53,570 nucleotides of DNA from the NCBI GenBank assembly GCA_025360045.1, contig JANYCY010000007.1:1-53570 (forward strand). Direction: 5' to 3'. Source of the DNA: Janthinobacterium sp. Lineage in GTDB: Bacteria > Pseudomonadota > Gammaproteobacteria > Burkholderiales > Chitinibacteraceae. Made by a program: the position numbers and the translations under genes. Below, one piece after another: positions 1-50,704 of the stretch (position 1 is the first letter of the stretch; every line of letters starts with the position of its first letter). The notes beneath the pieces are model-generated. The model worked only from the letters and a program-made list of their open reading frames with translations. It was not told the origin of the DNA and made no database searches.

Positions 1-108
1 GGCCTCGACCCACAAGCTTGGCTAACCGATACACTAGAAAAACTGCCAACCTGGCCCAACAGCCGAATCGATGAACTGCTACCACTGCGCCCAGTAACAG
101 AAAAATAA
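1..108 (+). CDS. IS66-family transposase, C-terminal end (partial)
   Basis: The reading frame is open from the first base to a TAA at 106-108 and encodes 35 residues beginning GLDPQAWLTDTLEKLPTWP and ending in a RIDELLPLRP-type tail. This matches the usual C-terminus of IS66-family TnpC transposases (a GLNPQAWL...LP..RI.ELLPW pattern), known from family knowledge. The catalytic DDE part lies outside the window, so whether the gene is intact cannot be judged. A terminal inverted repeat follows 12-32 bases downstream, as expected for the distal end of such an element. Confidence 0.85.
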   Translation, partial: GLDPQAWLTDTLEKLPTWPNSRIDELLPLRPVTEK

Positions 109-140
109 GCTGTGCAGTCACGGGGCGGCTGGGTGCTTAC
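1..140 (+). mobile_element. Right end of an IS66-family insertion sequence
   Basis: After the transposase stop, the sequence at 121-140 ends in GGGTGCTTAC. Read from the outside it begins GTAAGCACCCAGCCGCCCCG, matching the GTAAGC-type terminal inverted repeat known for IS66 elements. The element boundary is therefore placed at 140. IS66 elements usually make 8-bp target duplications, so bases 141-148 (ATAAAATG) are the predicted right-hand copy. The left end is outside the window, so the duplication cannot be confirmed. Confidence 0.75.
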
Positions 141-344: not shown

Positions 345-2888
345 ATGTCACTTACCCTAGTTCTAAAATTCTCAAGCAATCTTTCAAGTGATACAGGAAC
401 CGTGATTCCCATCGCGATAGAAAACGATGACGGCTCAGTCAGAGCGACAACGCCAGAAGAATACCCAAATAACAATAGAATATTTATATCCAAAGAATAT
501 TCCACAATAGATTCAAAATATGGAGACCTTGAATTATTCGTTCTTACTAAAGTCAATGAGAGCGAGGATCACAACGAAGACATCACATCACATTCTAAGT
601 TTTATTCCATGGGCTTTTATGCGAAATCTTTGGACACCAACACCTACCTTCCCATCATATCCATGGCGATGCCAGACATTGCATCAGGGCGAGTAGAGCA
701 AGGCCCTCCTATTGATATTGGCAATCGACATTTTTTCATATTGAACAATGAAATTGTGTCTGGCCCATTTTTAGCGCAGGCAGAAGAAGATATTTGGCTG
801 ATTGCGCCGACAAATACCACATCACCCCTAGCATTAAATAGCCATCATGTCGCGCAATTTAATCTCAACGAGCTAGAAGATGCAGGACTTATTCTTCGCA
901 GTTCAATGGGAGGAAACGATAGGCTATTCTTTACATCCCTTAAAAAAGCTAAGGATGAGGTGGGGTTTCAAAGTAAAGATTACATATCAGATTCGGCACT
1001 TATCCGATTTTTTGCCAAACAGGATTTTGGTAAAAGCATTGGAAACATAACAAAGGCCGAGGCAACTAAACTAGCAGCACTTATCGATGCATTTAGTAAA
1101 AAAATCAAAGTTACGAGTAATGATGAGCGGCGCATAAGGATAGATAACGTTCTAGAAAAATACATAAAATTTGACGGAATTGGGGTGGATGTTGTCCAGA
1201 ATTATTGGAACACCAAATCGGGAAAGATATTTTTAGAGGAATATGCAAGCACTAACCGAAATTCTTTGCTCAAAGATAAAATTGCAGAAATTGAGAAGGC
1301 CGAAGTCGGTTTACAAGAAAAATACGAACGGGAAACGGCCGATATTTTAGGAAAACTGGAAGATAAGCGTAAAGAATTAATTCAATTTGAATTAGACATG
1401 GATCGCAAAAAAAACGACCGTAAAATTGAGATGGAAATACTGATTGCTCAAACCAAAGAGCAAGAACAAAGTGCATTACGCAATCGTAATGACACGCTGA
1501 TGGCAGAAATAGAAAGTAATGAGGGCAAGTTAAGTGAACTAAAATTACGGGTTGGCAGCTACGAAAGCTTAGAGAAACTAAATAAAGAGTTCAACAAAAA
1601 AGAAAATCAGCTTGAATATCTTCGTGGTGAAGAGGCTAAGGTAAAGGGTCTTGTTGAAACGCAACGTAATTACATAAGTAGTCCGCAAATTGTTGACAAG
1701 GGTCTTGAATTTAAAACCATGCAAATGTTACTTAATGGTATATCTCCTGACACAAGTGACCTAATAGTTAGACCAATTATTTTACCTAAGCATGGCAGTC
1801 ATGTGACGGGGGAAACGCGCCAAAGCTATATCAACAGCCTAAAAATTGCACTGGAACAATCATCGGGTCGCCCATATAACCATGATGAAACGGCTAATTT
1901 ACTACTATGCACCCTGCAATCTTATATCACCATTTTAGCGGGACCACCCGGAACAGGGAAGACATCCACAGCAACTCGTTTTGCAGACGCCTTGGGTTTG
2001 ATCGCAAAGCAAAAAAGTTCTTTAGAAACGGATAATTTCCTTAGTATTCCTATCGGACGTGGTTGGGTTTCAAGCCGAGATATGCTGGGATTTTATAATT
2101 CATTGAAGAACACCTATCAACCATCACGAAGTGGGCTTTATTCATTTCTTAAAGCTTTTTCAGTTCACGAAGATAATAGTGAAAAAACTGATTTTCTAAA
2201 GCTAGTCCTCATGGATGAAGCTAATTTATCAGTAGTAGAGCACTATTGGTCTGACTTTCTATTGATGTGCGACTCCTTAGAAAAAAACAATAAAATAGAC
2301 CTAGGGATCGCCGACAAAAAAGAACGTTTTTTAGAAATTCCAAGTAGTCTTCGATTTATGGGAACAATCAACAATGATGCTTCCGTTGAAGGGCTAACGA
2401 GTCGTCTTATTGATCGTGCAGCGATTATCACACTGGGTTATGGTGCTGATTCTGGAACTGCAAATACTCAGGGGAATATTCTTTCCGGTGCCGTACCTTA
2501 TAAAGAATTGATGGATGCTTTTAGTCCAAAAAATGACGAAGAAGAAATGGAGCCATTTGAATCCGCACGGCTAAAACAAGTATTAGAGCTTCTATCAATG
2601 AGCTCAATCAAAGGTACTCAAATCCATTTCAGCCAGCGTAAATTAAATGCCATAACACGATACTGCTACATCGCTAATCAGTTAAATTTCGAGAAAATTG
2701 AACCTCTAGATTTCGCGATTAGCCAACATATTTTGCCGTCGATTAAAGGTAATGGACAAGGTTTGCGCGAGCGTTTACAGCTCCTAGAAGAAAAAATGGG
2801 CGAGTTTAAATATTCAGTATCACGAAAAATTATATTGAGCATCATTGATGCTGGTGATGATTTTTCTGACTCATATTCGTTCTTTTGA
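345..2888 (+). CDS. McrB-like AAA+ NTPase with a central coiled coil (restriction/defence-type)
   Basis: The 847-residue protein has three parts. Residues 1 to about 305 form an N-terminal region I do not recognise. Residues about 309-443 are a highly charged Glu/Lys-rich coiled coil. The rest is an AAA+ domain of the McrB/MoxR kind, with Walker A AGPPGTGKT at 532-540, Walker B LVLMDEANL around 620-628, and MGTINND at 672-678 followed by SRLIDRA at 686-692. That last stretch resembles the GT.N.D...(L/I)DRA segment of McrB-like ATPases paired with DUF2357 proteins. In McrBC systems the NTPase assembles rings that drive the McrC nuclease. The next gene encodes such a nuclease 7 bases downstream, so the two are surely one operon. 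Base use is clearly more AT-rich than from guaA onward, suggesting transfer. The start has only a weak GAG-type ribosome site. The substrate (DNA or RNA, modified or not) cannot be told. Confidence 0.8.
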   Translation: MSLTLVLKFSSNLSSDTGTVIPIAIENDDGSVRATTPEEYPNNNRIFISKEYSTIDSKYGDLELFVLTKVNESEDHNEDITSHSKFYSMGFYAKSLDTNTYLPIISMAMPDIASGRVEQGPPIDIGNRHFFILNNEIVSGPFLAQAEEDIWLIAPTNTTSPLALNSHHVAQFNLNELEDAGLILRSSMGGNDRLFFTSLKKAKDEVGFQSKDYISDSALIRFFAKQDFGKSIGNITKAEATKLAALIDAFSKKIKVTSNDERRIRIDNVLEKYIKFDGIGVDVVQNYWNTKSGKIFLEEYASTNRNSLLKDKIAEIEKAEVGLQEKYERETADILGKLEDKRKELIQFELDMDRKKNDRKIEMEILIAQTKEQEQSALRNRNDTLMAEIESNEGKLSELKLRVGSYESLEKLNKEFNKKENQLEYLRGEEAKVKGLVETQRNYISSPQIVDKGLEFKTMQMLLNGISPDTSDLIVRPIILPKHGSHVTGETRQSYINSLKIALEQSSGRPYNHDETANLLLCTLQSYITILAGPPGTGKTSTATRFADALGLIAKQKSSLETDNFLSIPIGRGWVSSRDMLGFYNSLKNTYQPSRSGLYSFLKAFSVHEDNSEKTDFLKLVLMDEANLSVVEHYWSDFLLMCDSLEKNNKIDLGIADKKERFLEIPSSLRFMGTINNDASVEGLTSRLIDRAAIITLGYGADSGTANTQGNILSGAVPYKELMDAFSPKNDEEEMEPFESARLKQVLELLSMSSIKGTQIHFSQRKLNAITRYCYIANQLNFEKIEPLDFAISQHILPSIKGNGQGLRERLQLLEEKMGEFKYSVSRKIILSIIDAGDDFSDSYSFF

Positions 2889-2895
2889 GTAACCC

Positions 2896-4758
2896 ATGAT
2901 GCTAGCAATCCAGATATTAAATGGTTCGTGTCAAGGTGAGGTACTGGAGCTATTCAGCACCTCACCTTCGCCTCCCACTCCCATAACTCTTCGAGAAGAT
3001 GACGTCATTCGATTCACTACAGTTTTGGATGAAGATTTACTCAATCTCACACTGGTTTTGCATGAAAATGAAGTGCTTTACACAAGACGATTCGAGAAAG
3101 ATGGCCGCTGGATCTATGAATGGCTTCCTAAGGATATGGGAAATCGAAAAGAAGCTTTTTTTCACAATTATTATGGATTGGCTGAGCTAACACTTATCGC
3201 GAAAAACCCCCAAAACTCAGATGAATTCATTTTTTTCAGAGAACTCAATCCAATTGAGGTCTTGGCAAAAAAAATTAATGCAGAACGAATTTCTTACATG
3301 CTAGATTTCCTTGCACGGCAAGATGGCAAAGATCTAGCAAGTGCTATCCGTATCACACGGATACGGGCAGGATACAAAGATGGGGGACGAACAGCGACAT
3401 TTTTGCTTGAGCGCATTGAGCATAATTTAATTTTTTTGAAAAAGGCTCTACCCGCTATTGGCTCAAGACCCATCATGAAACTTGAACAAATTTCGCGACT
3501 AGTCATTCCCAATCAAGAAACTCTAATTGATGAGCGGTCGCTCAGCTGGATTACAGAAAATACAGATAACCTTTATCAAGCGTCATCTTTAGATGAATCT
3601 ATTCTGAGCTTTGAAGGGGAGAACTTCAGCGCCTATAAAATCATCGAAAGCCAAACAGACGCTAGTTTTGATGTGTATGAAAATCAAGTTCTTCATGGTT
3701 TTATAGCGACTCTCATTTTTGCAAGCAAGGATATTCAGGCCAAACTCAGTCGCTATGCCAATATGCAGTTACAGCCAACTCGGCACTTTGAAGGCTACGT
3801 CTCATTTTTCAGCCAGCTTAATAAATTTTCTGATGCAATTAATAAGAGTAAATTCGAGCGATGCTCTCAACTGATCATTGAATTAAGCCGAATACATGCT
3901 TGGTTAAAACAAAAACTACCCGTAAAAAAAACCTGTCTTGGCATTCCACATTTCACACAAAAAGCCAAATATAACCTTTGTTATCAACAAGTTTTCAATC
4001 GGATGATTTCTTGGCATCGGCATGGAGCACCTGATTGGAGTTTTCAAGATGAGCTCAATTCTATTAAAGATATTCCTAGATTATTTGAGTATTACCTGCT
4101 CTGCGTTACCAAACATCACTTAGAAAACATGGGAACCCCCGATGTTCCTGTAACGCAAGAATACACAAAAGAATCAAGTGATATTTTCGAGTACAAATGG
4201 GGGGAAACTAAAATTCGATTAATGTATGAGCCTCAAATATGGATGGCAGGACACACTCAAATTAATTCAATGAATCTTGTTAATACAGAAGGCTGGACCA
4301 CAATTAACCGAGAAAATAATTATTGGCCAAACGCTAAACTATTAAAACCTCGTGGATCAACGGGTCGAAATTCAAATCGCTGCCCAGATTTGATGATTGA
4401 AATTAGTCAAGAGAATAATAACTCATCCCATATCATAATTGACGCCAAGTACACTGATAGTAAAAAAGCTTTTATTACTGAACTACCATCGTTAACAATG
4501 AAATATATTCATGGTATTCATCAAAGAAATAGCCACAAAAATCAAACAAGAGCGCTTATGATTGTCAATCCCGATGAGAAAGCACATACGAAACATTTTC
4601 ACCACGATGACTATAGCATCTATGGCAGATATCCAGTAACACCTGCATTAATGGTAACTTCTATAGATGTATCCAAAGCCCATGAGAGCAACTCAAACAT
4701 AAGGGGAGATATTTCAAGATTAATTGAATTAGCAAAACTGGGGTCAGACCACAGTTAA
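2896..4758 (+). CDS. DUF2357 / McrC-like PD-(D/E)XK nuclease
   Basis: The 620-residue protein is the predicted nuclease partner of the upstream AAA+ protein. Its N-terminal ~115 residues look beta-rich. A DUF2357-type helical middle follows, starting near FRELNPIEVLAKKINAERI and including YENQVLHGFI. The C-terminal third has a PD-(D/E)XK core: CPDLMIE at 496-502 with Asp498, then IIIDAKY at 513-519 with Asp516 and Lys518. Spacing and hydrophobic strands fit an intact active site. McrC proteins share this arrangement and cleave DNA when driven by McrB. Two adjacent ATGs (2896 and 2899) could serve as start. The gene is AT-rich like its partner. It is followed by about 90 bases of spacer and the guaA terminator, so no third gene of the module is visible on this side. 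Confidence 0.8.
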   Translation: MMLAIQILNGSCQGEVLELFSTSPSPPTPITLREDDVIRFTTVLDEDLLNLTLVLHENEVLYTRRFEKDGRWIYEWLPKDMGNRKEAFFHNYYGLAELTLIAKNPQNSDEFIFFRELNPIEVLAKKINAERISYMLDFLARQDGKDLASAIRITRIRAGYKDGGRTATFLLERIEHNLIFLKKALPAIGSRPIMKLEQISRLVIPNQETLIDERSLSWITENTDNLYQASSLDESILSFEGENFSAYKIIESQTDASFDVYENQVLHGFIATLIFASKDIQAKLSRYANMQLQPTRHFEGYVSFFSQLNKFSDAINKSKFERCSQLIIELSRIHAWLKQKLPVKKTCLGIPHFTQKAKYNLCYQQVFNRMISWHRHGAPDWSFQDELNSIKDIPRLFEYYLLCVTKHHLENMGTPDVPVTQEYTKESSDIFEYKWGETKIRLMYEPQIWMAGHTQINSMNLVNTEGWTTINRENNYWPNAKLLKPRGSTGRNSNRCPDLMIEISQENNNSSHIIIDAKYTDSKKAFITELPSLTMKYIHGIHQRNSHKNQTRALMIVNPDEKAHTKHFHHDDYSIYGRYPVTPALMVTSIDVSKAHESNSNIRGDISRLIELAKLGSDHS

Positions 4759-4845
4759 ACACAAAGAGCTAACAAAACCACTCAAACCATTACAAATCAC
4801 CTTCACCAACAGCTAGCGGCATACTCTCCCACACCCAAAAACAAC

Positions 4846-4872
4846 AAAACCCCAGCCATTGGCTGAGGTTTT
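4846..4872 (-). terminator. Intrinsic terminator of guaA (possibly bidirectional)
   Basis: AAAACC and GGTTTT pair around an inner AGCC/GGCT stem and a short loop. On the minus strand the hairpin runs into TTTTGTTGTTT, a fair U-tract, so it fits the 3' end of guaA. On the plus strand a T-containing tail also follows, so it may end the McrBC-like operon as well. Confidence 0.7.
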
Positions 4873-4917
4873 GCTTGTGTTTGTAATACTCAACAAACGC
4901 TAGAAACTAAGTCAGGA

Positions 4918-6495
4918 TCATTCCCACTCAATCGTAGCAGGTGGTTTTCCGCTTACATCATAAACAACGCGGTTAATGCCTTTCACTTCGTTAATGATGC
5001 GATTCGACACTTTGCCGAGTAAGTCGTAAGGCAGTTCGGCCCATTTGGCGGTCATGAAGTCGCTAGTAACTACGGCACGCAGTGCTACCACGTAGTCGTA
5101 GGTGCGGCCATCGCCCATTACGCCGACGGATTTTACTGGCAGGAAGACGACGAAGGCTTGGCTGGTGAGTTCGTACCAGTTTTTGCCGGTTTTTTCATCG
5201 ACTGTAGCGCGTAGCTCTTCGATAAAGATGGCGTCGGCAAAGCGCAGTAGATCAGCAAATTCTTGCTTTACTTCGCCAAGGATACGCACGCCTAGGCCTG
5301 GGCCTGGGAATGGGTGGCGGTAGACCAGCTCTGGGGCTAGGCCGAGCGCTACGCCTAGTTCGCGCACTTCGTCTTTGAATAATTCGCGCAGTGGCTCCAG
5401 CAAACTCAGCTTCATGGTTTCTGGCAGGCCGCCTACGTTGTGGTGGCTCTTGATGGTGTGCGCTTTGCCGGTTTTTGCGCCAGCAGATTCGATTACATCA
5501 GGGTAGATGGTGCCTTGGGCTAGCCATTTTGCGCTTGGCAATTTAGCGGATTCGGCTTGGAATACTTCTACGAATTCGCGGCCAATAATTTTGCGCTTGG
5601 CTTCTGGATCGGTTACACCAGCAAGGTGGCCCATAAATTGCGCGGCGGCGTCAACGTGAATCACTTTTACGCCAAGGTGCTCGGCAAAGGTAGCCATCAC
5701 TTGCTTGCCTTCGTTCAGGCGCAACAGGCCGTTGTCTACAAACACGCAAGTCAGTTGATCGCCAATGGCGCGGTGGATCAGGGCTGCGGCAACGGATGAA
5801 TCCACGCCGCCAGATAGGCCCAAGATCACTTCGTCTGTGCCGACTTGTTCGCGGATTTTGGCCACGGCTACGTCGATGTAGTTAGGCATGGTCCAGCTTG
5901 GCTTTGCGCCACAAATATCGAGCACAAAGCGGTTAATCATTTCACGCCCTTTTAGGGTGTGCGTTACTTCTGGGTGGAATTGCACGGCGTAGAAGCCACG
6001 CGCTTCGTCAGAAATAGCAGCAATCGGGCAAGCTTCGTTGCTGGCAATCACGGAGAAGCCAGCTGGCAGCGCGGTGACTTTGTCACCGTGGCTCATCCAG
6101 ACTTCTAATACGCTTTGGCCTGCGCTATTTTTGCGATCTTCAAGGCCGCCGAATAATTTGCTGCTTGCTTGCGCGCCAATTTCGGCAAAGCCAAACTCGC
6201 GCACCGTGCCTGCTTCTACCTTACCGCCTAGCGATTCGGCCATCCATTGCATGCCGTAGCAAATGCCGAGTACCGGCACGCCCAGCTCAAACAATTTAGG
6301 ATCGGCTTGGTAATCGCTCTCGTAAACTGAATTTGGGCCGCCAGAAAGAATAATACCGGTCGGCTTAAATTCACGAATAAAATCAATCGATACATCAAAA
6401 GAATGCAGCTCAGAATACACATGCGCTTCGCGAACACGGCGGGCAATCAGCTGAGTCACTTGCGAGCCAAAGTCCAAAATCAGAATTTTATCCAT
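4918..6495 (-). CDS. guaA: GMP synthase (glutamine-hydrolysing)
   Basis: GuaA converts XMP to GMP using ATP and ammonia from glutamine, the last step of guanine nucleotide synthesis. The 525-residue length is normal. An N-terminal class I amidotransferase domain carries the nucleophile Cys79 in GICYGMQ and the FHPEVTHT segment of the triad. An ATP-pyrophosphatase domain follows with the P-loop GLSGGVDSS (around 224-232). The C-terminal dimerisation domain contains [16 protein letters not shown] and ends in the typical PPATIEWE. No guaB lies next to it, unlike the guaBA operon of enterobacteria. The gene appears monocistronic, with its own terminator downstream. Confidence 0.98.
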
Positions 6496-31777: not shown

Positions 31778-32013
31778 TTTTGAGCCTCTACCTACGACTG
31801 ATCTAAGGTAAAGCGCCAAATCCTTACTTACCCCTGCGCGAGTGCAGAGCCAACACAGGCAACAATTATTCTTTCGTCATGCGTATCTAGCGCAATTTTG
31901 AGCCGACATTTATGACTGATCCAACACAAACCGCCCAATCCTTACTTAGCCCTGCGCTAGCGCATAGCCGATACCTGCTGCAATTATTCACCCGCCATGC
32001 GGATCTAGCGCAA
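31778..32013 (+). repeat. 118-bp tandem duplication of the glnE 5' end
   Basis: Unit 1 (31778-31895) and unit 2 (31896-32013) align without gaps. Both begin TTTTGAGCC, and about 78 of the last 99 bases match. Unit 2 holds the glnE start and its first 34 codons. In unit 1 the base positions of the ATG read ACG (31794), and a TAA follows five codons later (31809-31811), so unit 1 is a decayed, untranslated copy. The junction is exact. Nothing else is in the yhdP-glnE gap apart from the presumed promoters. Confidence 0.9.
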
Positions 32014-34599
32014 GAAACCCTAGAGCAGCTCGCTCAGCCTTATACCCGAGCAAGTATGGAAGCACAGCTAAACGCTACTTTTGAGCTGGATGATCAAGCT
32101 TTAAAACAACGCTTACGCCTCTTGCGTCAGGCGGTTATGGCAAGGCTCATCAGCAGAGAATTAGCCGGTTTATCAGACCTCACCGAAGTAATGCACACCA
32201 TCAGCGATCTGGCTGAAGTCACCTTGGCGGCTGCTTTAGCTTGGGTGTCCCAGCCCGACGCACGCTATGGCCTGCCCATAGGTGAAGAATCTGGGCAGGT
32301 GCAAGCGCTGATTATTGTGGGCATGGGCAAATTAGGTGGGCGCGAGCTAAATGTATCGTCTGATATTGATTTGATTTTTATCTTCCCCGAAGACGGCCAA
32401 ACCACGGGGCCACGCAAAATCAGCAATTCTGAATACTTTGCCCTGATCGGCAAGCGGCTCATCAGCCTGATTGGCGAAATCACCGATGAAGGCTTTGTAT
32501 TTAGAGTGGATATGCGCTTGCGCCCGTTTGGCGATGTGGGCCCGCTGGCTTGCAGCTTTGCCGCATTAGAAGGCTATTTGCTCACCCAAGGCCGTGAGTG
32601 GGAGCGCTATGCTTGGATCAAAGCGCGGGCGCTGTGTGGTGATGAAGCGGGGCTGATGCAAATGGTCACGCCCTTTGTTTATCGTAAATACCTCGATTAC
32701 GGCGCTTATCAATCCATGCGCGAGCTACACAGCCAAATTCGCCGCGAAGTGGCGCGTAAAGACAAAATCGACAATATCAAACTCGGGCCGGGCGGGATTC
32801 GTGAAATTGAATTTATCGGCCAAGTTTTTCAATTGATACGCGGTGGGCGCAATAAAATCCTACAGCAGCGGCCAACCCAAGCCATTTTGGACGAGCTGGC
32901 CCAGCAAGGCACCCTGACGCACGCCGCCGTAGCCGAACTACAAGAAGCTTACTCGTTCTTACGCAATACCGAACATCGCTTAATGTATCTGGACGATACA
33001 CAAACCCAGATGCTGCCGCTCAATGCTGAAGATCAAGCCCGGATTGCGCTCAGCATGGGCTTTAGCGATTGGGCGCAGTTTAAAGAACAGCTCACCTTGC
33101 ACCGCAGCCGTGTCAACCAACACTTTGAGCATGTTTTTGTGCTACCGCCCGATGAAGGCGAAGACCACCCACAAGCGGCCATATGGCTCAGCGCACAGGA
33201 TGGCGACAGCACCGATCTGGCCGCATTAGGCTTTGAAAACCCTAATGAAATCAACCGCCGTTTGTCCTCAATGCAAAGCAGCAGCCGCTACCAGCAAATG
33301 CCTGATCGCTGCCGCAAACGCATAGACAGTATTTTGCCGCCTTTAATTGAAGTCGCCGCTAATTTTCATAATCCTGACGCTACTTTCACTCGTATTCTCG
33401 ATTTACTCGAGGCCATCAGCCGCCGCGAATCCTACCTTGCCCTACTGGCCGAACACCCGCGCACCTTAAAGCGGCTGGCTAGCCTGTATAGCGCCAGCCC
33501 TTGGGTATCGCAATATTTAACTCGCCATCCTATTTTGCTCGATGAGCTGCTCGATTTCCGCTTATTAGAAGAGCTGCCTGACTGGCCCAAACTCGGCAAA
33601 ATCTTACGCCAAGAATTAAAAGACTTAGAAGATGACACCGAAGCCAAGATGGATTGCTTACGTCATTTTCAACACGCGCAAGTTTTTAGATTAGTTTGTC
33701 AGGATTTAGATGGCCTACTGGTACTAGAAACGGTATCAGATCACTTATCTGATTTGGCCGACTTAATGCTCACCGTTACGCTTGAGCAAGTCTGGCAAGA
33801 GCTGCCAAATACGCACCGAGCCAAGCCCCAATTTGCAGTCATTGGCTATGGAAAACTCGGCGGCAAGGAGCTGGGCTTTGCCTCTGATTTAGACATTGTT
33901 TATCTGTTTGATGACGATCACCCTAATGCCGCCGAAGTCTATGCCAAATACGCCAAACGCATCGTCAATTGGCTAACCGCGCTCACCCCTGCCGGGCATC
34001 TTTATGATATTGATTTACGTCTGCGGCCCAATGGCACATCGGGCTTACTGGTTTCCAACATCGGTACCTTTGCCCAATACCAACGAGAATCGGCCTGGGT
34101 GTGGGAGCACCAAGCCCTCACTCGCGCCCGCTATTGCGCAGGAGATCGCGTCGTAGGCAATGCTTTTGAAGCCATTCGTGAAGATGTTTTGCGCACGCCA
34201 CGCGATTTAGCCAAGTTGCGCGATGAAGTGCGCACCATGCGCAAACGCATGCTCGAAACCCACCCTGCACGGCCAGAAGATGTGAAACATGTACGAGGTG
34301 GGATTGTTGATATCGAATTTATCATGCAATACCTCATCTTGGCCTACGCCAAAGAGCACCCCGCCTTTTACCTAAACAGCGGCAATATCGCCCTACTCGC
34401 CACCGCCGCACAACTCGGCTTAATTCCACAAGATGCGGCCCTGCTTGCAGCAAATGGCTACCGAGAATTACGCCGCCTACAGCACAGCAGTCGCCTAAAT
34501 GGCACTGAACTGACACCAAAGATGCTCCTACCCATCCAAGCTCAGCTGGCAGCCGTCAAATTACTTTGGGAGACTTTATTTGAGGAAGACTTGGGGTGA
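31912..34599 (+). CDS. glnE: Bifunctional glutamine synthetase adenylyltransferase/deadenylase
   Basis: GlnE attaches AMP to glutamine synthetase and removes it according to nitrogen status. The 895-residue protein has two nucleotidyltransferase domains. The first has GMGKLGGRE near 137-145 followed by SSDIDLIFIF (the deadenylase half). The second has GYGKLGGKE at 645-653 followed by ASDLDIVYLF (the adenylylase half). GGIREIEFIGQ and GGIVDIEFIMQ flank them. The length is near the usual 930-950 residues. The first 34 codons exist as a degenerate tandem copy directly upstream. No strong ribosome site precedes the ATG. Confidence 0.97.
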   Translation: MTDPTQTAQSLLSPALAHSRYLLQLFTRHADLAQETLEQLAQPYTRASMEAQLNATFELDDQALKQRLRLLRQAVMARLISRELAGLSDLTEVMHTISDLAEVTLAAALAWVSQPDARYGLPIGEESGQVQALIIVGMGKLGGRELNVSSDIDLIFIFPEDGQTTGPRKISNSEYFALIGKRLISLIGEITDEGFVFRVDMRLRPFGDVGPLACSFAALEGYLLTQGREWERYAWIKARALCGDEAGLMQMVTPFVYRKYLDYGAYQSMRELHSQIRREVARKDKIDNIKLGPGGIREIEFIGQVFQLIRGGRNKILQQRPTQAILDELAQQGTLTHAAVAELQEAYSFLRNTEHRLMYLDDTQTQMLPLNAEDQARIALSMGFSDWAQFKEQLTLHRSRVNQHFEHVFVLPPDEGEDHPQAAIWLSAQDGDSTDLAALGFENPNEINRRLSSMQSSSRYQQMPDRCRKRIDSILPPLIEVAANFHNPDATFTRILDLLEAISRRESYLALLAEHPRTLKRLASLYSASPWVSQYLTRHPILLDELLDFRLLEELPDWPKLGKILRQELKDLEDDTEAKMDCLRHFQHAQVFRLVCQDLDGLLVLETVSDHLSDLADLMLTVTLEQVWQELPNTHRAKPQFAVIGYGKLGGKELGFASDLDIVYLFDDDHPNAAEVYAKYAKRIVNWLTALTPAGHLYDIDLRLRPNGTSGLLVSNIGTFAQYQRESAWVWEHQALTRARYCAGDRVVGNAFEAIREDVLRTPRDLAKLRDEVRTMRKRMLETHPARPEDVKHVRGGIVDIEFIMQYLILAYAKEHPAFYLNSGNIALLATAAQLGLIPQDAALLAANGYRELRRLQHSSRLNGTELTPKMLLPIQAQLAAVKLLWETLFEEDLG

Positions 34600-50570: not shown

Positions 50571-50704
50571 AACCCAAATCTTGAACCACAGAGAACACAG
50601 AGAACACAGAGAGCACAGAGTTTCACAGAGAAGCTCTAAACCAGAGGGTAGGTTTTCTCTGTGGCACTCTGTGTCCTCCTTTTACTCTGTGGTTCAAGAT
50701 TTAG
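50571..50704. repeat. CACAGAG-type long inverted repeat (copy 3, most complete)
   Basis: The left part AACCCAAATCTTGAACCACAGAG plus repeated AACACAGAG units (roughly every 9 bases) is answered on the right by TTTTCTCTGTGGCACTCTGTG and CTCTGTGGTTCAAGATTTAG. Between them lies AAGCTCTAAACCAGAGGGTAGG. It is the fullest copy in the window. Confidence 0.85.

What the first reader, a model, noticed from the sequence alone, without database searches (positions are those of the whole stretch)
345..4758. Two-gene McrBC-like module with a coiled-coil NTPase and a DUF2357/PD-(D/E)XK nuclease
The pair is seven bases apart, AT-rich, beside an IS66 end, and has intact NTPase and nuclease motifs. The NTPase carries a coiled coil of roughly 135 residues and an unrecognised 305-residue N-terminal region. 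That resembles coiled-coil McrBC relatives (the CoCoNuT group) but lacks their extra nucleases and helicases here. The N-terminal region would be the natural target sensor and may be undescribed.
Basis: partly seen in the sequence, partly recalled or inferred. Interest (0 to 1): 0.8.

Follow-up and report, generated by a model that had tools for sequence, protein, structure and literature searches.

The report
Two-gene coiled-coil McrBC-like defence module
A bacterium carries, next to a housekeeping gene, a two-gene system related to the DNA-cutting enzyme McrBC that probably protects it from viruses; it fits an already described but experimentally untested family and is a new member rather than a new kind.

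Summary
In detail: two intact, AT-rich genes (345-2888, 847 aa; 2896-4758, 620 aa) seven bases apart, between an IS66 remnant and the 3' end of guaA. They form an McrBC-like pair with the shortened NxD sensor motif. The partner's predicted structure has E. coli McrC as best PDB match (E 2.6e-5); D498/D516/K518 are invariant in 12 of 12 aligned relatives. The NTPase resembles McrB over 177 residues, Lon over 28 (blastp), but hhalign does not separate McrB from Lon, and trees do not settle its root. The "missing nucleases and helicases" are no anomaly: published Type I-A and I-C CoCoNuTs consist of these two genes only. Type I-A is excluded; Type I-C or an unnamed sister fits best. Residues 1-107 look weakly like an OB fold; at 108-215 no YTH-like domain was found, which counts somewhat against I-C. 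Some relatives lie on plasmids, near a phage terminase, in a P4-like element, or beside DpdE, MvaI/BcnI or TIR genes; in 5 of 7 readable sister genomes the guaA spot holds an integrase or a defence-like gene. An anti-phage restriction role is likely but unproven; target and effect are inferred.

The parts
1..140 (+). 3' tail of an IS66 transposase gene (stop at 106-108) and IS end; the contig breaks here
   Evidence: 99-100% identical copies at C69, C23, C90; C90 copy is IS66 transposase by Pfam
345..2888 (+). CnuB/McrB-like NTPase, 847 aa
   Evidence: ORF; PADLOC PDC-M26A 2.3e-16; blastp to E. coli McrB 2.7e-5 over 177 residues; hhalign to McrB 96.3% but to Lon 96.1%
345..665 (+). residues 1-107: beta-rich domain, tentatively a cold-shock-like OB fold
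   Evidence: AF2 model; Foldseek only weak: exosome chain 5vzj_I prob 0.51, viral cold-shock protein prob 0.38
666..989 (+). residues 108-215: second beta-rich region with conserved GPF (G140, P141 in 14 of 14); fold unresolved
990..1259 (+). residues 216-305: helical region
   Evidence: AF2 secondary structure; pLDDT 56-89 in 10-residue blocks
1260..1694 (+). residues 306-450: coiled coil
   Evidence: 41% charged, 5% Gly+Pro, heptad windows partly above shuffles; matches to coiled coils
1827..2885 (+). residues 495-847: McrB-like AAA+ NTPase domain
1941..1967 (+). Walker A GPPGTGKTS (533-541)
2202..2225 (+). Walker B LVLMDEAN (620-627)
2370..2378 (+). NxD sensor motif N676-N677-D678, one residue shorter than McrB NTAD
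   Evidence: N676 and D678 invariant in 14 of 14; alignment to McrB
2896..4758 (+). CnuC/McrC-like activator-nuclease, 620 aa
   Evidence: ORF; Foldseek best hit McrC 6ut6_G, E 2.6e-5, prob 1.00
2896..3243 (+). residues 1-116: N-terminal beta-sandwich, Ig-like; RhoGDI among the weaker matches
   Evidence: AF2 strands; RhoGDI 1hh4_D, 5fr1_B, 2jht_A prob 0.75-0.80, Ig protein 3wyr_A 0.99, over 103-148 columns with E 0.11-0.30; the listing does not print the query range
3244..4155 (+). residues 117-420: DUF2357 helical bundle (McrC stalk/activator)
   Evidence: Pfam DUF2357 8e-05, 22.4 bits against a cut-off of 23.3; helices in the model
4183..4755 (+). residues 430-620: PD-(D/E)XK nuclease
   Evidence: Pfam PDDEXK_7 6.3e-04, 20.3 bits against 22.1; P497, D498, D516, K518 invariant in 12 of 12
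4843..4875 (.). 15-pair stem with a T run on the minus strand: terminator-like site between the pair and guaA
   Evidence: number of such sites not above the shuffled expectation for the region
4918..6495 (-). guaA; its 3' end (4920-4932) carries the sequence known as an island insertion core
   Evidence: ORF, named by its sequence (recalled); core pattern once in the genome; site known from PMC7775301

Best explanation
It is a mobile, two-gene Type IV-restriction-like defence module with an NxD-type McrB relative (the CoCoNuT branch of McrBC), best matched by Type I-C. Proposed working, in order: (1) CnuB assembles a hexameric NTPase ring, probably a GTPase, as McrB does [inferred from homology]. 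(2) Its N-terminal beta domains, held out on a coiled coil, bind the target nucleic acid [inferred]. (3) CnuC docks into the ring through its DUF2357 stalk; the NxD aspartate is the contact through which it stimulates hydrolysis, and the Ig-like domain may tune it [likeness to McrC shown; action inferred]. (4) The PD-(D/E)XK domain cuts [catalytic residues shown; cutting and substrate inferred]. The outcome is restriction of phage or plasmid DNA, possibly with an RNA-sensing step that triggers it.
For: NxD and Walker residues invariant in 14 of 14 aligned CnuB. blastp of the window's NTPase domain: McrB-type rows L025 2.7e-8 over 188, L026 1.2e-7 over 149 and E. coli McrB 2.7e-5 over 177 residues, against Lon 4e-4, RuvB 0.005 and RavA 0.027 over 23-28 residues; hhalign against a three-row McrB-type alignment 97.1%, 5.2e-11. 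McrC is the top PDB structural match of CnuC, and RhoGDI is among the weaker ones, a feature Bell et al. give for Type I-B and I-C. The coiled coil is fused to CnuB, unlike I-B. A second ORF follows in 34 of 36 loci. Defence or mobile context: L010 has a DpdE-like gene 37 bases downstream (PADLOC 3.6e-186); L004 MvaI/BcnI endonuclease and a cytosine methyltransferase; L006 a TIR gene; L029 lies between an integrase and a P4-alpha-like primase; L028 has a DNA methylase, an AAA ATPase and a subtilase downstream; L032 lies about 2 kb from a phage terminase; L034 and L036 are in loci with integrases. The guaA slot holds an integrase or defence-like genes in 5 of 7 readable sister genomes. All 14 aligned CnuB match PADLOC's candidate model PDC-M26A.
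Against: No experiment on this pair; no test of an NxD McrB relative was seen in searches judged by titles and abstract starts. hhalign does not separate McrB (96.3%, 2e-9) from Lon (96.1%, 3.7e-9; RuvB 88.6%, RavA 46.1%). The trees do not settle the root: in the tree with Lon, RuvB and RavA the McrB trio attaches inside the NxD rows on a branch of length 10 and the controls split off at 58/37, so a monophyletic NxD group was not shown here. Reference Type I-C sequences could not be fetched. The OB call is weak and no YTH-like domain was identified, although Bell et al. say that almost all early-branching I-B and I-C systems have one. RhoGDI is not the best Ig-type match (3wyr_A, 0.99). CnuC against McrC by sequence is weak (9.5%). 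Neighbourhoods were only sampled; L009 and L020 looked mostly ordinary by eye. Residue 679 after NxD is A, where E or D is usual.
Confidence: 0.66

Rival explanations
1. It is a CoCoNuT-like NxD system outside the named types (an unnamed sister of Type I-C) with a different, non-YTH sensor. It would work as above but recognise another target.
For: Residues 108-215 gave no confident fold match and no Pfam or PDB profile hit of note; G140 and P141 are kept in 14 of 14 relatives; the window's 7-row clade has 100/99 in both trees; almost all early I-B and I-C systems are said to have YTH.
Against: A shallow alignment (14 rows) can hide a known fold; Bell et al. call YTH frequent, not obligatory, in I-C.
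Confidence: 0.35
2. It targets RNA or acts by abortive infection rather than by cutting invading DNA: recognition of phage-altered RNA activates the nuclease.
For: Cold-shock-like OB folds typically bind RNA or ssDNA, and Bell et al. predict RNA targeting for CoCoNuTs.
Against: The only nuclease seen is a PD-(D/E)XK of the McrC type; no further gene lies between the IS66 end and guaA; the OB call is weak.
Confidence: 0.25
3. The pair serves competition between mobile elements or stability of an island without protecting the host from phages.
For: Relatives on plasmids, near phage genes or in a P4-like element; L009 and L020 lie among mostly ordinary genes by eye.
Against: Adjacent DpdE-like, R-M and TIR genes in part of the loci and AriA/AriB-like, NERD-UvrD and PDC-M38 genes in the sister slot; P4-like satellites are a published site of tested anti-phage systems (PMC9122126, passages).
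Confidence: 0.12

Closest known systems
Type I-C CoCoNuT (CnuB-CnuC), Bell et al. 2024, PMC11090510
   Same: NxD NTPase with fused coiled coil, two genes only, CnuC with Ig-like sandwich, DUF2357 and PD-(D/E)XK domain
   Different: N-terminal OB fold only weakly supported and YTH-like domain not identified; reference sequences could not be compared
Type I-A CoCoNuT
   Same: Two genes, coiled coil, NxD
   Different: No helical insert between Walker B and NxD (52 residues against 54 in E. coli McrB); no CPxC in CnuC
E. coli K-12 McrBC (EcoKMcrBC)
   Same: AAA+ NTPase plus DUF2357/PD-(D/E)XK partner in adjacent genes
   Different: NxD instead of NxxD; no DUF3578 hit; coiled coil and beta-rich N-terminus instead; Ig-like domain on the McrC side
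PADLOC candidate PDC-M26
   Same: PDC-M26A model hits CnuB at 2.3e-16 over residues 324-659 and all 14 aligned CnuB
   Different: In the window the hit covers profile positions 162-446 of 724; no PADLOC model matched any of 12 CnuC; no paper in the library names PDC-M26
YdjA-YdiS model (PDB 9a5m)
   Same: Second-best structural match of CnuC (E 3.7e-5, prob 0.98)
   Different: Not compared further; its link to BsuM restriction in B. subtilis is recalled

Membership tests
NxD-branch McrB (CoCoNuT and relatives) | NxD signature in place of NxxD | tested here: met
   NND at 676-678; N and D invariant in 14 of 14; one-residue deletion against McrB
NxD-branch McrB (CoCoNuT and relatives) | Grouping in one clade apart from NxxD McrB | tested here: inconclusive
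   First tree separates the McrB trio from 30 rows; with outside controls the trio attaches inside the NxD rows on a saturated branch and the root is weak
CoCoNuT | Long coiled coil fused to the NTPase | tested here: met
   Composition, heptad windows and coiled-coil profile matches at about 306-450; heptad test not specific; no dedicated coiled-coil program was run
CoCoNuT Type I | Cold-shock-like OB fold at the CnuB N-terminus | tested here: inconclusive
   Beta-rich 1-107; Foldseek probabilities 0.51 and 0.38 at E above 0.1
CoCoNuT Type I-C | Operon of CnuB and CnuC only | tested here: met
   guaA follows on the other strand, IS66 end before; the contig ends there
CoCoNuT Type I | CnuC with N-terminal Ig-like beta-sandwich | tested here: met
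   Strands at 1-116 and Ig-type structure matches; also present in non-CoCoNuT NxD systems
CoCoNuT Type I-C | Ig-like domain closest to RhoGDI | tested here: inconclusive
   RhoGDI chains at prob 0.75-0.80, E 0.16-0.30, but 3wyr_A at 0.99 and other Ig folds rank similarly
CoCoNuT Type I-C | YTH-like domain between OB fold and coiled coil (frequent) | tested here: inconclusive
   No YTH or EVE match for 108-215
CoCoNuT Type I-C | Position in the published GTPase tree | not testable with these tools
   Supplementary sequences and the named GenBank proteins were not available
CoCoNuT Type I-A | Helical insert between Walker B and NxD | tested here: not met
   52 residues against 54 in McrB
CoCoNuT Type I-A | Zinc ribbon (CPxC) in CnuC | tested here: not met
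   No CPxC
CoCoNuT Types II and III | Adjacent SF1 helicase CnuH; McrC nuclease motif lost | tested here: not met
   No such gene between IS66 end and guaA; nuclease residues present
CoCoPALM | FtsB-like segment with transmembrane helix on the NTPase | tested here: not met
   Highest 19-residue hydropathy 1.1, at 516 in the NTPase domain
Canonical McrBC | NxxD motif and DUF3578 domain | tested here: not met
   NxD; no DUF3578 hit at E up to 1

The most novel reading that the evidence does not exclude
The beta-rich region 108-215 of CnuB, with its GP pair kept in the 14 aligned relatives, is an undescribed nucleic-acid or phage-signal sensor, and this clade, found on plasmids, in IMG/VR contigs and in a P4-like element, is a distinct CoCoNuT subtype that recognises something other than the modified bases expected of a YTH domain.
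Probability: 0.22. Interest if true: 0.55.

Novelty: new member of a known kind. Interest (0 to 1): 0.36.

Why it matters
Bell et al. (2024) state that no NxD-motif McrB GTPase had been characterised. A compact two-gene member with intact motifs is one of the simpler places to test what this branch recognises and cuts. The guaA 3' end in this genus also looks like a changing cargo site that could be mined for further defence genes.

Tried and rejected
Housekeeping AAA+ (Lon, ClpB): the profile's top PDB sequence hits (Lon 5.8e-7, McrB 0.0037) align coiled coil plus Walker A, while the McrB hit runs past Walker B (to 630). As controls I then ran hhalign against E. coli Lon, RuvB and RavA: Lon scored like McrB, so that comparison is not specific; blastp and the McrC-like partner favour McrB. 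Profile search of CnuC against PDB sequences: no match up to E 10; of the N-terminus: none. Pfam at E up to 10 on 14 N-termini: 15 families, each in one member, treated as noise, HIRAN 0.11 in the window included. PHROGs on two window proteins and four relatives: weak or generic ATPase hits to CnuB, none to CnuC. tblastn in the phage collection: no match, although IMG/VR contigs carry relatives. Second copy of the guaA core: pattern found once in the genome, so no direct repeat was shown; the window holds no integrase next to the pair. Promoter-like sites: 8 against 13.6 in shuffles. Relatives: CnuB in 3 of 150 near genomes, own included, the other two matching the NTPase part only; CnuB profile in 12 of 369 of the class at 1e-10, own included; CnuC in 3 of 399 of the order, own included, the other two at 3.9e-5 and 7e-4.

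Rows left out: of the 36 entries, A2 holds 14 and A3 12. The first tree dropped L021, L030, L031 (same place as L004) and L035; the second also L022, L023, L024, L034, L037 and L038 (long branches). My DxK pattern found nothing in the partner of L022, L023, L024 or the cut L035.
Full report
What is there. Two genes lie head to tail at 345-2888 and 2896-4758 on the + strand, seven bases apart, in a stretch of 38-41% GC against 41-58% in the later bins. To the left the contig breaks inside an IS66 copy; to the right, after a terminator-like stem at 4843-4875, is the 3' end of guaA on the other strand. Each gene has one match in this genome of 4.02 Mb. The first gene has no match in the eight other genomes of the genus (G001-G008).

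First gene. Pfam gives generic AAA hits below their cut-offs. PADLOC gives its candidate PDC-M26A at 2.3e-16, which all 14 aligned members match. The alignment A2 keeps Walker A, Walker B and an N-x-D motif in 14 of 14. hhalign of A2 with E. coli McrB gives 96.3%, E 2e-9 over window residues 530-701, with the sensor one residue shorter than NTAD. As a control, E. coli Lon gives 96.1%, 3.7e-9, RuvB 88.6% over 22 columns and RavA 46.1%: hhalign with single sequences does not tell McrB from Lon. A three-row McrB-type alignment gives 97.1%, 5.2e-11. blastp of the window's domain does discriminate: McrB-type L025 2.7e-8 over 188 residues, L026 1.2e-7 over 149, E. coli McrB 2.7e-5 over 177, but Lon 4e-4 over 28, RuvB 0.005 over 23 and RavA 0.027 over 27.

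Trees. In a tree of 33 NTPase domains, E. coli McrB and two actinobacterial relatives with NTAD are split at 100/100 from the other 30, and the window sits in a clade of seven at 100/99 with a Citrobacter and an Acinetobacter plasmid, Aliivibrio and IMG/VR contigs. Rooting was by midpoint. With Lon, RuvB and RavA added and six long rows dropped (30 rows), the seven-row clade is again 100/99, but the McrB trio attaches beside L005, L006, L032 and L033 inside the NxD rows on a branch of length 10, and the controls split off at 58/37. So the clade of seven is firm; a single NxD group apart from NxxD McrB is not shown here.

N-terminus. AlphaFold2 on residues 1-315 with 14 sequences gave pLDDT 78.7 and pTM 0.67: beta-rich to about residue 212, then helices. 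Foldseek found nothing under 0.001 in the PDB or the viral library. Hits with the higher probabilities in the listed top 50 include an exosome subunit (5vzj_I, 0.51) and an enterotoxin complex chain (1sbb_D, 0.51), and in the viral set an unnamed protein (0.41) and a cold-shock protein (0.38); that the first two hold OB folds is recalled. This is weak support for the cold-shock-like domain of Type I CnuB. Region 108-215 found no named match. G140 and P141 are invariant in 14 of 14.

Second gene. Pfam DUF2357 (8e-05) and PDDEXK_7 (6.3e-04) fall just short of their cut-offs; at 0.01, DUF2357 is found in 6 of 12 and PDDEXK_7 in 8 of 12 relatives. The model (pLDDT 77.5, pTM 0.71) shows an N-terminal set of strands, a helical bundle and an alpha/beta C-terminal part. 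The best PDB match is McrC in the E. coli McrBC complex (E 2.6e-5, prob 1.00), the second YdjA-YdiS (3.7e-5, 0.98); TM-scores are low (0.18 by query). RhoGDI chains (0.75-0.80) and Ig domains (3wyr_A 0.99) match over 103-148 columns at E 0.11-0.30. Sequence-only comparison with McrC is weak (9.5%). P497, D498, D516 and K518 are invariant in 12 of 12.

Which known system. Bell et al. 2024 (PMC11090510; abstract, sections 7 and 8, part 1 of 2 of section 9, and passages read; figures and supplements not seen) define CoCoNuTs within the NxD branch. Types I-A and I-C consist of CnuB and CnuC only; I-A has a helical insert between Walker B and NxD; I-B has no fused coiled coil; in I-B and I-C the CnuC Ig domain most resembles RhoGDI; almost all early-branching I-B and I-C systems have a YTH-like domain. 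The window has no insert (52 residues against 54 in McrB), no CPxC, a fused coiled coil and an Ig-like CnuC N-terminus. That leaves I-C or an unnamed sister; the missing YTH match speaks for the sister, but the fold is unresolved. The paper states that no NxD McrB GTPase had been characterised., judged from titles and abstract starts, listed no later test; the library lacks most subscription journals, and the other papers listed there were not opened. PMC11514479 (passages) lists other PADLOC candidates and shows nothing on PDC-M26.

Neighbourhoods. Of the relatives read, L010 (uncultured proteobacterium) has a DpdE-like gene 37 bases downstream (PADLOC 3.6e-186); L004 (A. baumannii plasmid) has MvaI/BcnI endonuclease, cytosine methyltransferase and Vsr genes; L006 (Klebsiella plasmid) a TIR gene; L029 lies between a tyrosine integrase and a P4-alpha-like primase; L028 has a DNA methylase, an AAA ATPase and a subtilase downstream; L032 lies about 2 kb from a phage terminase; L034 and L036 are in loci with integrases. 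L002, L003 and L005 lie among plasmid genes in which I saw no clear defence gene by annotation. P4-like satellites are a published site of tested anti-phage systems (PMC9122126, passages). Against this, L009 and L020 have mostly ordinary chromosomal neighbours by eye, and the phage collection gave no match. On plasmids 289 of 72,556 records match the first gene, 5 of them over at least 80% of it in one place, and 4 match the second.

The guaA slot. The 3' end of guaA is a known insertion site (PMC7775301, passages, citing Song et al. 2012, not read); the published core GAGTGGGA is present here within 4920-4932 on the complementary strand. Seven of eight sister genomes could be read past guaA; in the eighth the matching contig starts inside guaA. 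G003 and G004 have an integrase there; G006 a NERD-UvrD protein (C3a187, 4.4e-168), G007 an AriA/AriB-like pair (1.1e-28, 2.3e-28) and G008 PDC-M38A/B (4.5e-148, 9.1e-76). For G002 two genes were scanned with one weak PADLOC hit (2.1e-5); G005 was not scanned. No second copy of the core was found in the window's genome, so insertion by site-specific recombination is suggested, not shown.

Verdict. A real, intact McrBC-like module with a probable anti-phage role, filed provisionally with Type I-C CoCoNuT or a sister. It is a new member of a described but untested kind. The open part is the sensor at residues 108-215.

Noticed in passing
L084-L090, downstream of guaA in sister genomes: The spot after guaA holds different cargo in the readable sister genomes: integrases, an AriA/AriB-like pair, a NERD-UvrD protein, a PDC-M38 pair, and in L085 genes that look filamentous-phage-like by eye.
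   Followed up: partly
L010:5438-9607: A 1389-aa DpdE-like protein starts 37 bases after the CnuC homologue, as if in one operon.
   Followed up: partly
L011, L016, L018, L019: CnuB relatives of 1068-1142 aa in Lachnospiraceae, Ruminococcus and Succinivibrionaceae carry about 230-290 extra residues before Walker A.
   Followed up: no
L028:12900-17783: A DNA methylase, an AAA ATPase and a subtilase follow the pair, possibly a second defence module.
   Followed up: partly
L033:7150-9734: The CnuB homologue is split into two frames next to an intact CnuC; neighbours look phage-like by eye, though Pfam found nothing in the one scanned.
   Followed up: no
L003:10704-13403: The CnuC homologue on an Acinetobacter indicus plasmid is 899 aa, about 280 longer than that of the window.
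   Followed up: no
window 31796-32013: A 118-base unit repeated 1.8 times in tandem, overlapping the start of a large ORF (31912-34599).
   Followed up: no
window 50587-50632: Five copies of a 9-base repeat (CACAGAGAA) just after a 1354-aa ORF.
   Followed up: no
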